35,793 nucleotides of DNA, from positions 1 through 35,793 of the IMG/VR virus record IMGVR_UViG_3300036862_000019, one strand, 5' to 3'. Numbering within the stretch: position 1 is the stretch's first letter; each line of letters begins with the position of its first letter. The stretch comes from a virus. The notes beneath the pieces were generated by a model that saw nothing but the letters and a program-made list of their open reading frames with translations, was not told where the DNA came from and did not search any database. Shown one piece after another: positions 23,823 to 26,892 of this stretch. The position numbers were made by a program, and so were the translations under genes.

Positions 23823-24002
23823 ATGGATGAAAGTCAAATGCCCGAAACGCCAACAAAGCAAGAGATTGAAATCAAGCCAATTCGCTTCAACGCCGAGATG
23901 CGCGAGCGTATCGGTAAGTTCCAACAAAAGGACGGGCGCGAAAATTTCAGCATGGCCGTGCGACGCCTCTTGGACCTGGCGCTTAAAGCGCAGGGATTGT
24001 GA
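23823..24002 (+). CDS. Ribbon-helix-helix type small DNA-binding protein
   Basis: A 59-residue protein. EIEIKPIRFNAEMRERIGKF, then ENFSMAVRRLLDLALKAQG, gives a beta strand followed by two helices as in Arc/MetJ proteins. There is no clear ribosome binding site; the expected start of transcription is only about 13 bases upstream, so translation may be nearly leaderless. It precedes the initiator gene and might autoregulate this unit. Confidence 0.65.
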   Translation: MDESQMPETPTKQEIEIKPIRFNAEMRERIGKFQQKDGRENFSMAVRRLLDLALKAQGL

Positions 24003-24009
24003 GGACAAC

Positions 24010-25116
24010 ATGCAAAGAATTAGGACGATCAAGCCAGAATTCTTTAAGCATGACGAATTGTACGACGCCGAATTACAAGTGGATTTGCCATTGCGCTTGG
24101 CCTATGTCGGTCTTTGGACCTGCTGCGATCGAGAAGGCCGGTTCAAATGGAAGCCGCGGCAATTGAAGGCCAGCATCCTCCCTTATGACGAAGTAGATTT
24201 TTCTGACGTGCTGGATGCGTTGGAAATTCACGGGTTCGTACGGAGCTATGAGCACGATGGAGAGAAATACGGAGAAGTCCCAACTTTCAAAGAGCATCAA
24301 TGCGTAAATACCCGCGAAGCGAAATCAAACTTACCTGAACCGCCTGAGTACGACAATGCAATGCACGTGCGTGCACGTGCAAGGATTGCACAGGAGTTTC
24401 GCGGGAAGAACGTCACCAAGACGGTTAGGCAAACCATCTATGCCAGGGACGGCCATCAATGTGTTCGGTGTGACGCTACGGAAGACCTGACGATTGACCA
24501 TATTTTCCCGCAATCCATGGGCGGAACTCATTTCCCTAGCAACCTGCGAACCCTATGCCGGCCTTGCAATTCGGCTAGGCCAGTCGCAGGACAGGCATTG
24601 ATAGATGACCTTGCTAGTGATGGGCTTACCCTGAATGACATGCAGCGCACATGCATGCACGTGCATGCACAAGGGGAAGGGAAGGGAAGGGAAGGGAAGG
24701 GAAAGGAAGGGAATTCCGCCTCCTCACCGTCGGCGGGGCGTGTGGTGTCGATTCAGCCTAAGCAATCAAACCCGCTGAATGCAGAAACCTGGACTGCATA
24801 CGAATCAGCGTATCAACAGAGGTATGCGGTTGCACCGGTACGCAACGCCAAGACCAACAGCCAAGTGGTGCAACTGGTGAAACGGCTAGGTCAGAATGCG
24901 CCCCTCGTGGCTGGCTGGTTTGTCTCGCACAATAAGGGTTGGTACGTGCAGAAGTCGCACAGCCTGGATTGCCTGGTTGCTGACGCGGAAGGACTGTATA
25001 CGCAATGGGCGACCAACCACCAGGTGACGGAAAGCCAGGCACGCAGCGCTGACCGCATGGGCAATGCTGGCCGCCGTTTGGATTCTTTGGTGTTTGACGA
25101 TTCGGAGCCGTTCTGA
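24010..25116 (+). CDS. Replication initiator (O-like) with an internal HNH endonuclease domain
   Basis: A 368-residue protein. Residues 1-105 form the N-terminal wing typical of phage O-like initiators (MQRIRTIKPEFFKHDELYD; LAYVGLWTCCDREGRFKWKP). Residues 138-188 are an intact HNH domain: zinc Cys151, Cys154, Cys183, Cys186, with Asp163-His164 and Asn178. Residues 222-234 are a GKGREGKGK-type linker coded by a GGGAA tandem array. The C-terminal region (WFVSHNKGWYVQKSHSL) is typical of such initiators. The HNH section lies between two near-identical palindromes. It should load host replication machinery; the origin probably lies inside the gene. Confidence 0.8.
   Translation: MQRIRTIKPEFFKHDELYDAELQVDLPLRLAYVGLWTCCDREGRFKWKPRQLKASILPYDEVDFSDVLDALEIHGFVRSYEHDGEKYGEVPTFKEHQCVNTREAKSNLPEPPEYDNAMHVRARARIAQEFRGKNVTKTVRQTIYARDGHQCVRCDATEDLTIDHIFPQSMGGTHFPSNLRTLCRPCNSARPVAGQALIDDLASDGLTLNDMQRTCMHVHAQGEGKGREGKGKEGNSASSPSAGRVVSIQPKQSNPLNAETWTAYESAYQQRYAVAPVRNAKTNSQVVQLVKRLGQNAPLVAGWFVSHNKGWYVQKSHSLDCLVADAEGLYTQWATNHQVTESQARSADRMGNAGRRLDSLVFDDSEPF
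24362..24381. repeat. Palindrome upstream of the HNH-coding section
   Basis: TGCACGTGC, centre GT, GCACGTGCA: 9-bp arms inside the initiator gene, before the HNH domain. It shares the GCACGTGCA core with the palindrome at 24652-24669. Confidence 0.75.
24652..24669. repeat. 18-bp perfect palindrome downstream of the HNH-coding section
   Basis: TGCATGCACGTGCATGCA reads identically on both strands. It lies directly before the G-rich array and mirrors the palindrome at 24362-24381, so the two bracket the HNH-coding section. Candidate initiator-binding site. Confidence 0.8.
24673..24711 (+). repeat. GGGAA tandem array, G-quadruplex capable, inside initiator gene
   Basis: Six runs of at least three G (24673-76, 24679-81, 24684-86, 24689-91, 24694-96, 24699-701) separated by AA, and a seventh at 24709-711. 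It codes a flexible Gly/Lys/Glu/Arg linker. Runs this spaced can form a quadruplex on the plus strand. Gain or loss of one 5-base unit would shift the frame. Confidence 0.85.
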
Positions 25117-25796
25117 TGACAAAAAATTATGCCCCTAGCGAGATTGCCGAGGCGATCAAGATTTCTGCCGAGTTGTGCGGCTCTGAACTATCGGACGGTG
25201 CCATCAAGGCGATGATGCTGCACCTGAAGCCGCATGGTGGCCACGCGGTGATGGCGGCGCTGACTCTGTGCCAGCGCGAAGTCAAAGGGCGCTTGGCATT
25301 GCCGGACATTCTTTCCCGTCTGCAAGCCAAGGATGGCCGCCCCGGAGCGGAGGAAGCGTGGGCACTGGTGGCGAATGCACTGGCCGACGAGGCCGAAACC
25401 GTAGTGTGGACCGACGAAATGGCGCAAGCCTCGGCCGCGGCCGGCGAACTGATGCGCCTCGGCGATAAGGTCGGCGCGCGCATGGCGTTTCGTGAGACAT
25501 ACGAGCGGATGGTGGCGGATGCCCGCCAGATAGGCCAGGAACCGCGCTGGAGCGTTTCAGCCGGTTCGGATAAGGCTAGGGCTGCCCTGGTGATAACCGA
25601 GGCCGTGGCGGCCGGTAGATTGCCGAAAGCGCACGCACTGATCGCGCTGCCCAGTACCGCCGACGACGCGCGCCATCAGCTGCTGACCGGGCAGGTGTTG
25701 AGCTTGGAAGACAAACAGAAAGCCAAGCAATCGCTGCAAGGCTTGCGCCTGCTGATCGAGAGCAAAGCGATGCCGTTGACCAAGGATGAAGCATGA
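25116..25796 (+). CDS. Replication-region protein, possible helicase loader
   Basis: A 226-residue helical protein following the initiator in a TGATG overlap. A segment GRLALPDILSRLQAKDGRPG and a C-terminal half of alternating helices are seen. In phages with O-like initiators the next gene often loads host helicase, but no Walker motif or known loader signature is visible here, so this is positional inference. Confidence 0.6.
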   Translation: MTKNYAPSEIAEAIKISAELCGSELSDGAIKAMMLHLKPHGGHAVMAALTLCQREVKGRLALPDILSRLQAKDGRPGAEEAWALVANALADEAETVVWTDEMAQASAAAGELMRLGDKVGARMAFRETYERMVADARQIGQEPRWSVSAGSDKARAALVITEAVAAGRLPKAHALIALPSTADDARHQLLTGQVLSLEDKQKAKQSLQGLRLLIESKAMPLTKDEA

Positions 25797-26008
25797 CCGA
25801 CCGCACCTACGGCATCCACCACCACAGCCTGGACGGCGTGCAGGAGCTGTACCCCAATTCCAAGACGTTGTCCGACCTGGTGGCGCATATCCGGGAGTTG
25901 CAGGCGGAGAATGCGGCGCTACGCCATGACAAAGATTGGCTAAGCGATAACTTGGTAAGCGCTTTGGCTGAGCTGAATGTGGTGTGTCAGAAAAGCTCTA
26001 GAAGATGA
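25793..26008 (+). CDS. 71-aa coiled-coil protein
   Basis: Begins MTDRTYGIHHHSLDGVQELY and continues with an HIRELQAENAALRHDKDWL coiled coil. The HIRELQA segment also occurs in the accessory gene at 28431. Starts in an ATGA overlap. Function unknown. Confidence 0.65.
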   Translation: MTDRTYGIHHHSLDGVQELYPNSKTLSDLVAHIRELQAENAALRHDKDWLSDNLVSALAELNVVCQKSSRR

Positions 26009-26892
26009 GCGCCTACTACAACGAAATCGACCCCTACGCAGCGCAGTGGCTGCGCAACCTGATTCAGGCCGGACTGATCGCGCCCGGCGACGTAGACGAA
26101 CGGAGTATCGAGGATGTCAGACCTGATGATTTGCGAGGCTATACGCAATGTCACTTTTTCGCTGGAATTGGAGTTTGGTCCCTCGCTCTTCGTCGCGCCG
26201 GATGGGACGATACGCGACCAGTCTGGACGGGAAGTTGCCCGTGCCAGCCTTTCAGCGCGGCAGGCCAGGGACTTGGGTTTGCTGACGAGCGGCACCTATG
26301 GCCCGCTTTCCACCACCTCATCAGCCAGTGCCGCCCTGCAATCGTGTTTGGAGAGCAGGTTGCGAGCAAAGACGCAGACCCTTGGATCGACCTTGTACAA
26401 ACTGACATGGAAGGACTGGATTACGCCTTCGGGGCGGTGCCGTTCCCGGCTGCGGGCGTCGGTGCGCCGCACATTCGCGACCGATTGTACTGGGTGGCCG
26501 ACGCCAACGAAGGGAAACGGGGACCGTGGAGGGATGGACCCGTCAAAGCGCAAGGGGCACATGGTCAATTTGCAGGATGCGGTAACTCTTACCGGTTGGC
26601 CGACGTCGATGGCCGGAACGCCAGCGCAGAACGGCAACAATGCTGCGGGGTACAACGACAGCAGCCGCAAAACGGTGGATTTGTGCAAGCCGGACAGCCC
26701 GGCCCGGTTAACGGATTCTGGCGAGCTGCTGACTGGCTCGCTTGCCGGGATGGAAAGTGGCGGCCAGTTGAACCCGACTCATTCCCGCTGGTTAATGGCG
26801 CTGCCGGCAGAGTGGGACGCCTGCGCGCCTACGGAAACGCCATCAATGCTGAAGCGGCGACAGCTTTCATCCGAGCCTATTTAGGCGCATAA
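26005..26892 (+). CDS. DNA (cytosine-5) methyltransferase
   Basis: A 295-residue enzyme that transfers a methyl group from SAM to C5 of cytosine. Motif I is FFAGIG at 51-56. Motif IV is GSCPCQPFS with catalytic Cys80. Motif VI is FGEQVAS with Glu117. Motif X is [10 protein letters not shown] with GNA at 277-279. The segment [16 protein letters not shown] is typical of phage members. It probably protects phage DNA from host restriction. An open, protein-like second frame covers 87 percent of the gene. Confidence 0.93.
26114..26884 (+). CDS. ORF nested in the methyltransferase gene, conserved-looking protein
   Basis: A 256-codon frame in the +1 frame relative to the methyltransferase. CGGAG at 26101-26105 lies 8 bases before its ATG. 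It holds features that chance frames lack: two GWPT(P/S) motifs at residues 127-131 and 161-165, [32 protein letters not shown], and [13 protein letters not shown] at 219-231. I recall the last as a segment seen in phage proteins and resembling the WLMGxP segment of other cytosine methyltransferases. Both frames stay open over 771 bases. Whether it is translated is not known. Confidence 0.6.

What the first reader, a model, noticed from the sequence alone, without database searches (positions are those of the whole stretch)
26114..26884. A 256-codon protein-like ORF nested in another frame of the cytosine methyltransferase
The methyltransferase has all its key motifs (FAGIG, PCQ, EQV, GNA), so its frame is real. 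The +1 frame stays open for 771 bases, has a ribosome binding site 8 bases before its ATG, and codes motifs that look conserved: two GWPT motifs and [13 protein letters not shown], reminiscent of a segment of other phage methyltransferases. This suggests overlapping dual coding, in which one stretch encodes two proteins, perhaps a methyltransferase and a partner or specificity subunit.
Basis: partly seen in the sequence, partly recalled or inferred. Interest (0 to 1): 0.85.

Follow-up and report, generated by a model that had tools for sequence, protein, structure and literature searches.

The report
Gene hidden inside phage methyltransferase gene
In this phage one stretch of DNA carries two overlapping genes, a DNA cytosine methyltransferase and, read one base over, what is very probably its missing target-recognition partner; the same gene-within-a-gene occurs in hundreds of related phage sequences, where annotation often shows only one of the two.

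Summary
A 256-codon ORF (26114-26884) lies in the +1 frame of a C5-cytosine methyltransferase gene (26005-26892) and is a real coding frame. Of 80 loci fetched with the methyltransferase profile alone, 80 hold the nested homologue in that frame. Nested-frame dN/dS is about 0.33 from methyltransferase codon 82 onward, against 1.23 in the non-overlapping control. The nested ATG and a Shine-Dalgarno site are kept by biased synonymous codons.

Best reading: the frames encode alpha and beta subunits of a split methyltransferase. Alpha holds motifs I-VIII and X. Beta holds the target-recognition region and a motif-IX-like segment, homologous to what single-chain mycobacteriophage methyltransferases carry before motif X. 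In codons 166-233 mainly the nested frame is constrained, and alpha's residues 170-230 are modelled as disordered.

M.EcoHK31I splits its motifs the same way (PMC3404938, passage), so the kind is known; the breadth seems under-recognised. Complex formation and methylation are inferred. Against: nested residues 1-44 show no detectable constraint, and the nested protein alone gave a poor structure model.

The parts
26005..26892 (+). Alpha: C5-cytosine DNA methyltransferase, 295 aa, motifs I-VIII and X; its ATG overlaps the TGA of the upstream ORF 25793-26008 (ATGA)
   Evidence: Pfam PF00145 E 1.5e-11 and phrog_363 E 2.2e-90; M.HhaI is the best sequence and structure match; overlap with the upstream stop
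26114..26884 (+). Beta: nested gene in the +1 frame, 256 aa; target-recognition region and motif-IX-like segment
   Evidence: Homologue in +1 frame in 80 of 80 MTase-selected loci; dN/dS; phrog_31772 E 6.4e-38, phrog_1008 E 1.6e-23
26102..26105 (+). Shine-Dalgarno site GGAG, 8 nt before the nested ATG
   Evidence: Sequence; 59% of 232 relatives have a match of 4 nt or more here against 6.5% under synonymous recoding
26114..26247 (+). Nested N-terminal part (about residues 1-44, over MTase codons 38-81): not detectably constrained
   Evidence: Nested dN/dS 0.67 [0.34-1.39]; identity as expected from the MTase alone
26248..26499 (+). Dual-coding stretch 1 (MTase codons 82-165): motifs IV-VIII in one frame, nested N-terminal domain in the other
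   Evidence: dN/dS nested 0.34, MTase 0.21
26500..26703 (+). Middle stretch (MTase codons 166-233): GWPTP-type variable region of the nested frame; alpha's frame is nearly unconstrained here
   Evidence: dN/dS nested 0.32 [0.22-0.43], MTase 0.80 [0.67-0.93]; alpha residues 170-230 pLDDT below 50
26704..26865 (+). Dual-coding stretch 2 (MTase codons 234-287): approach to and motif X in alpha, motif-IX-like segment in beta
   Evidence: dN/dS nested 0.34, MTase 0.17
26768..26806 (+). Nested [13 protein letters not shown] (residues 219-231), motif-IX-like
   Evidence: Profile-profile match of nested 216-243 to the segment just before motif X of single-chain mycobacteriophage methyltransferases, prob 93.6, E 2e-7, 28 columns
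26833..26841 (+). Motif X core GNA of alpha (residues 277-279)
   Evidence: Invariant or nearly invariant in A2; name of the motif from general knowledge

Best explanation
The locus encodes a naturally split, two-subunit C5-cytosine DNA methyltransferase as a gene within a gene. The outer frame makes alpha (AdoMet binding and catalysis, motifs I-VIII, plus motif X). The +1 frame, started from its own Shine-Dalgarno site and ATG, makes beta (GWPTP-type target-recognition region plus a motif-IX-like helix). Alpha and beta would join so that beta supplies the DNA-reading small domain beside the active site, and the phage methylates DNA at a sequence set mainly by beta. Shown here: both frames are coding and under selection; the start signals are selected; alpha has a conserved large domain and a nearly unconstrained middle; beta is homologous to the segment that single-chain relatives carry in-frame between motif VIII and motif X. 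Inferred: the physical complex, the need for both chains, target specificity and any protective role.
For: 80 of 80 MTase-selected loci hold the nested homologue in the +1 frame; 190 of 190 loci with a single overlapping MTase ORF, of 193 sequences examined, have the same frame. Per-frame dN/dS in 28 pairs. Start signals: Asp37 is GAT in 196 of 225 against 28% elsewhere; Arg33 is AGG in 93 and CGG in 49 of 231. Nested profile matches residues 279-414 of single-chain mycobacteriophage IrishSherpFalk gp71 (E 4.4e-8 among ORFs of 12 loci); motif-IX-like segment aligned just before motif X. Same arrangement in a distant family: 79 of 80 relatives of Paenibacillus phage Lily's methyltransferase, one annotated as 'g62 internal gene'. 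Precedent: M.EcoHK31I large subunit I-VIII and X, small subunit IX (PMC3404938, passage). Alpha middle disordered.
Against: No expression, binding or methylation data. The nested N-terminal 44 residues show no constraint. The nested protein alone gives a poor model (pLDDT 58.3, pTM 0.27) and no structural match below E 0.19, and no match to solved structures by sequence. Motif IX is assigned by position: the C-terminal profile of single-chain relatives reaches a solved methyltransferase only at E 0.7. PMC3404938 places the predicted recognition domain of M.EcoHK31I in the large subunit, whereas here selection points to the nested frame. In 5 of 5 relatives of the Stenotrophomonas phage SBP5phi2 enzyme no nested match was found. 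Gordonia split forms match the nested profile only weakly (E 0.004-0.013).
Confidence: 0.83

Rival explanations
1. The nested frame encodes a translated protein with another job (for example a regulator or counter-defence protein) that happens to overlap the methyltransferase.
For: Nested frame is coding; it has no Pfam or NCBIfam match and no structural match; residues upstream of the GWPTP region have no counterpart named here.
Against: Its C-terminal half is homologous to the in-frame segment between motif VIII and X of single-chain methyltransferases; no stand-alone copy among the 190 assignable loci; alpha lacks a constrained, ordered segment there.
Confidence: 0.1
2. Programmed ribosomal frameshifting joins the catalytic part of alpha to the nested recognition part, so the working product is one chain, not two.
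For: Single-chain relatives exist in mycobacteriophages; L191 shows a natural frame swap.
Against: Selected Shine-Dalgarno site and ATG of the nested gene; nested frame constrained upstream of any joint, over MTase codons 82-165; the nested ORF of the window ends without motif X, which alpha's frame supplies. No search for slippery sites was made.
Confidence: 0.06
3. The long open frame is a passive by-product of codon usage and of the conserved methyltransferase protein.
For: For the window alone the stop test is modest (p 0.012, region chosen for being open) and the overlap is 61% G+C; the nested N-terminal 44 residues behave in just this way.
Against: 80 of 80 MTase-selected loci keep it, with 13.2 stops on average in the other frame; dN/dS and shuffle controls; the same in a family of 49% mean G+C.
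Confidence: 0.01

Closest known systems
M.EcoHK31I (YGGCCR), two-polypeptide C5 methyltransferase
   Same: Large subunit with motifs I-VIII and X, small subunit with motif IX (PMC3404938, passage); called naturally split (PMC3439449, passage). From recall only: the small-subunit gene lies inside the large one in another frame.
   Different: There the predicted recognition domain was placed in the large subunit; here selection and homology place it in the nested frame. Sequence homology between the two could not be tested.
M.AquI, two-polypeptide C5 methyltransferase
   Same: Split enzyme whose small subunit carries the distal variable region and motif IX (PMC3404938, passage)
   Different: Motif X is in the small subunit there; here it is in alpha.
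Single-chain mycobacteriophage methyltransferases (IrishSherpFalk gp71 and relatives)
   Same: PTP-type modules and the motif-IX-like segment homologous to the nested protein
   Different: Those parts are in-frame with the catalytic core in one chain
Paenibacillus phage Lily LILY_62 with LILY_63 'g62 internal gene'
   Same: Nested +1-frame gene inside a C5 methyltransferase, homologous to the window's (E 2.1e-12 among ORFs of 12 loci)
   Different: Shorter (165-codon open frame); its alpha has motif I first, as in M.HhaI
PHROG families 31772 and 1008 ('DNA methyltransferase')
   Same: Match the nested protein in 26 of 26 members of A1
   Different: The label is that of the outer frame; the nested protein has no Pfam methylase match
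ShiLan-domain out-of-frame HNH endonuclease in actinophage methylases (PMC11855218)
   Same: A second protein coded out of frame inside a phage methylase gene (abstract, part of Results, Discussion)
   Different: A mobile insertion coding an HNH nuclease; here the nested gene overlaps the catalytic core itself and has no HNH match

Membership tests
C5-cytosine DNA methyltransferase (alpha) | Catalytic PCQ motif, AdoMet-binding FAGxG motif, motif VIII and GNx motif X in one frame | tested here: met
   Alignments A2 and A5; Pfam PF00145; M.HhaI Z 14.6, rmsd 3.6, 178 aligned
C5-cytosine DNA methyltransferase (alpha) | Recognition region and motif IX between VIII and X in the same chain | tested here: not met
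   That stretch of alpha is nearly unconstrained (dN/dS 0.80 [0.67-0.93]) and modelled as disordered at 170-230; the homologous segment is in the nested frame
M.EcoHK31I-type split C5 methyltransferase | Motifs I-VIII and X in one polypeptide, motif IX in another | tested here: met
   motif IX identified by position before motif X, not by a significant match to a solved structure
M.EcoHK31I-type split C5 methyltransferase | Small-subunit gene nested in the large-subunit gene in another frame (recalled for EcoHK31I) | tested here: met
   for this family; the EcoHK31I arrangement itself was not seen
M.EcoHK31I-type split C5 methyltransferase | Both polypeptides needed for methylation | not testable with these tools
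   Needs expression and methylation assay
M.EcoHK31I-type split C5 methyltransferase | Sequence homology to EcoHK31I alpha and beta | not tested
   The EcoHK31I sequences were not at hand
Overlapping (dual-coding) gene pair | Purifying selection in both frames of the same DNA | tested here: met
   Codons 82-165: nested 0.34, MTase 0.21; 234-287: nested 0.34, MTase 0.17; control codons 1-36, nested frame 1.23. Not met in codons 38-81 for the nested frame
Overlapping (dual-coding) gene pair | Own translation start for the inner gene | tested here: met
   Codon bias that keeps ATG and Shine-Dalgarno site; no ribosome data
ShiLan-type out-of-frame HNH insertion | Out-of-frame ORF is an HNH endonuclease in an insertion | tested here: not met
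   No HNH family among Pfam, NCBIfam or PHROG matches of the nested protein

The most novel reading that the evidence does not exclude
Gene-within-a-gene split methyltransferases are a major, ancient and often half-annotated form of phage C5 methyltransferase across phages of at least three bacterial phyla. Catalysis is coded in one frame and target recognition in the +1 frame; the recognition modules evolve nearly free of the catalytic frame, and frame swaps within the repeated PTP modules convert split enzymes into single-chain ones and back.
Probability: 0.65. Interest if true: 0.82.

Novelty: new member of a known kind. Interest (0 to 1): 0.72.

Why it matters
Few long overlapping genes are fully established in prokaryotic genomes (so the abstract of PMC9927249, seen in the listing). 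This one has hundreds of natural replicates, so dual-frame evolution can be measured directly. It explains why these phage cytosine methyltransferases seem to lack a recognition domain in their own frame, and it warns that expressing only the annotated ORF may give a dead or partial enzyme. The modular second frame offers a testable route to how target specificity changes.

Tried and rejected
Chance open frame: rejected. Bias from seeking relatives with the nested protein: the sets have it, so the set was fetched with the MTase profile; 23 of its 80 loci repeat nested-query loci and 57 do not. All these sets are the best-scoring 80 of longer lists, so they favour close relatives, and one search was not freed of duplicates. 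HNH insertion: rejected. Stand-alone nested copies: none among 190 assignable of 193 sequences (window, its own copy L032 and 191 others); I made no scan aimed at stand-alone copies. Structure of the nested protein alone: low confidence and no match. Link of the motif-IX-like segment to a solved methyltransferase: E 0.7 only. tblastn suggested that N15's nested frame is broken; with the HMM its profile positions 30-251 lie in one open frame, so only the N-terminal part is interrupted. Relatives of the Stenotrophomonas phage SBP5phi2 enzyme: no nested match in 5 of 5. Broken cases: PMG1 (L001) has its MTase frame interrupted near the N-terminus with the nested frame whole; L076 also has its MTase start in another frame; two symbiont loci, L145 and L176, have interrupted frames; L271 has a stop in the nested frame at codon 63. 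The Lily-family pair test rests on 5 pairs only.

Literature: ten searches of an open-licence library showed no paper on this overlap in phages; most subscription papers are not held, so this is weak evidence of absence. What I saw: PMC3404938, PMC3439449, PMC6456624, PMC4574080, PMC5582158 and PMC11860570, passages; PMC11855218, abstract, first part of Results, Discussion; PMC9927249, start of abstract in a listing. Lee et al. 1995 (EcoHK31I) was not seen; its nested arrangement is recalled.

Full report
What is there. The window is a virus record of 35,793 bases. A C5-cytosine methyltransferase ORF runs 26005-26892 (295 aa; Pfam PF00145 E 1.5e-11, phrog_363 E 2.2e-90). A second ORF of 256 codons, 26114-26884, lies inside it on the same strand in the +1 frame, with GGAG 8 nt before its ATG.

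Is it more than chance? For the window alone, permuting synonymous codons gives 3.25 stops on average in the nested region, none seen, p = 0.012; the region was chosen because it is open. Over 192 loci, mostly found with the nested protein, 97 reach p < 0.05 and 57 p < 0.01. The decisive evidence is comparative. Of 193 sequences examined, 190 have exactly one overlapping methyltransferase ORF, and in all 190 the nested ORF is in its +1 frame. Because those were mostly found with the nested protein, I fetched 80 more with the methyltransferase profile only: 80 of 80 hold the nested homologue in the +1 frame, and 57 of them were new. In 22 of 80 the nested frame is open throughout the scanned part; in 57 the stops lie near the 3' end of the methyltransferase gene; in one (L271) there is a further stop at codon 63. 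The other frame holds 13.2 stops on average.

Selection. Over 232 distinct methyltransferases, third-position entropy at conserved fourfold codons averages 1.80 bits in the non-overlapping codons 1-36 (8 columns), 1.13 in 38-165 (32), 1.66 in 166-235 (8) and 0.82 in 236-289 (14). Single codons are nearly frozen, such as P111 CCT in 228 of 229 and V255 GTT in 215 of 216. In 28 independent close pairs, differences at codon positions 1/2/3 are 0.051/0.035/0.226 in codons 1-36, 0.032/0.015/0.189 in 38-81, 0.068/0.025/0.089 in 82-165, 0.246/0.132/0.145 in 166-233, where the nested third position (methyltransferase position 1) is the fastest, and 0.057/0.030/0.100 in 234-287. Frame-wise dN/dS, same choice of pairs: nested 1.23 [0.82-1.97], 0.67 [0.34-1.39], 0.34 [0.25-0.43], 0.32 [0.22-0.43] and 0.34 [0.25-0.47] in these five stretches; methyltransferase 0.09, 0.06, 0.21, 0.80 [0.67-0.93] and 0.17. 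So codons 82-165 and 234-287 are dual-coding, the nested frame leads in between, and the first 44 nested residues are not measurably constrained. The shuffle control agrees: nested identity to the window is 0.634 against 0.33 expected in codons 82-165 and 0.638 against 0.35 in 234-287, but 0.407 against 0.353 in codons 1-35 and 0.321 against 0.298 in 38-81 (comparisons with more than 80% methyltransferase identity in the stretch left out).

Translation signals. The nested ATG needs GAT at aspartate 37: it is GAT in 196 of 225, against 100 of 362 aspartate codons in codons 2-30. Arginine 33 is AGG in 93 and CGG in 49 of 231, making (A)GGAG; AGG is 10 of 254 arginine codons in codons 2-30. Of 232 sequences 59% have a Shine-Dalgarno match of 4 nt or more at proper spacing, against 6.5% under synonymous recoding. 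Of 267 nested ORFs 254 have an ATG within ten codons of the expected start, 206 with a start codon exactly there. This argues for independent initiation of the nested protein rather than frameshifting.

Breadth. The distant methyltransferase of Paenibacillus phage Lily carries an annotated 'g62 internal gene' in the +1 frame, which the nested profile recognises (E 2.1e-12 among ORFs of 12 loci). In 80 IMG/VR relatives of that enzyme, fetched with the methyltransferase (mean G+C 0.49), the longest +1 ORF overlaps it by a median of 212.5 codons against 39.5 for the +2 frame, and 79 of 80 match the nested profile in the +1 frame. Synonymous constraint again begins with the nested gene and relaxes after its end (46 distinct sequences; 5 close pairs). 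In actinobacterial phages the arrangement varies. In Gordonia phages GordDuk1 and Camerico the parts are on two overlapping ORFs, the second carrying PTP, motif-IX-like and GNS segments, but the profile match is weak (E 0.013 and 0.004). Mycobacterium phage IrishSherpFalk has a single chain. Of 30 relatives of the latter, 12 have a nested-profile hit in the methyltransferase frame and 7 in the +1 frame. In L191 the methyltransferase ORF runs into the nested C-terminal part while motif X lies in another frame. Five of 5 relatives of a Stenotrophomonas phage enzyme lack a nested match.

What it does. The nested profile matches IrishSherpFalk gp71 residues 279-414, in-frame in a single-chain methyltransferase (E 4.4e-8). 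Profile-profile alignment ties nested 216-243 to the segment immediately before motif X (prob 93.6, E 2e-7, 28 columns). Alpha therefore has motifs I-VIII and X, the nested protein the region between VIII and X. AlphaFold2 models alpha with block means of 69-96 for residues 1-150 and 87-89 for the last 15, and leaves 170-230 below 50. M.HhaI is the top structural match (Z 14.6, rmsd 3.6, 178 aligned). The nested protein alone gives a poor model (pLDDT 58.3, pTM 0.27, 55 of 267 available sequences used) with no structural match; that fits a subunit that folds on its partner but proves nothing. The simplest mechanism is a heterodimer in which beta provides the DNA-reading small domain.

Comparison. 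M.EcoHK31I is a two-polypeptide C5 methyltransferase whose large subunit has motifs I-VIII, X and the predicted recognition domain, and whose small one has motif IX (PMC3404938, passage). I recall, without having seen it here, that its small-subunit gene is nested in another frame. That makes the present locus a member of a known kind. What seems new is how widespread it is, that the recognition region is under selection in the nested frame, and that single-chain and split forms appear to interconvert. Existing records show partial awareness: K1ind3 annotates both frames ('C-specific methylase' and 'Mte8-like protein') and so does PhiXhv-28; PMG1 annotates only the nested one; N15 and BcepC6B only the methyltransferase. 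Of 5,426 E. coli genomes 68 hold DNA similar to part of the locus and one to at least 80% of it. PHROGs 31772 and 1008 are labelled 'DNA methyltransferase' although they match the nested frame.

Limits. No expression, binding or methylation data; motif IX is assigned by position; homology to EcoHK31I is untested; fetched loci are the best-scoring part of longer lists; the literature search covered only open-licence papers.

Noticed in passing
window 26005-26247 (MTase residues 1-81): Motif order looks locally permuted: residues 1-45 ([13 protein letters not shown]...) correspond to the stretch after motif I in M.HhaI (model residue 1 aligns with HhaI residue 34), while motif I (FAGIG) follows at about 52-66, just before PCQ. 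Profile alignment supports the place of motif I (E 2.1e-7); the match of residues 3-17 to the post-motif-I stretch is weak (E 0.013).
   Followed up: partly
window 23827-25116: A 429-aa ORF matches replication initiation proteins at residues 62-181 and HNH endonucleases at about 168-251, with a further match at 311-410 to a family of unknown function: perhaps an HNH domain set into an initiator protein.
   Followed up: no
L191:3871-4982: Frame swap in a betaproteobacterial genome: the methyltransferase ORF continues into the nested C-terminal part, while the methyltransferase C-terminal part with motif X lies in another frame.
   Followed up: partly
L161:3880-5784: A second, divergent methyltransferase ORF follows the first and also carries a partial nested match (42 bits) in an overlapping frame.
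   Followed up: no
L001:1376-2294 (Pseudomonas phage PMG1): The methyltransferase frame is interrupted near its N-terminus while the nested frame is whole and is the only one annotated.
   Followed up: partly
PHROG families 31772 and 1008: Labelled 'DNA methyltransferase' but matching the nested frame, which has no Pfam methylase match: a label that hides the overlap.
   Followed up: partly
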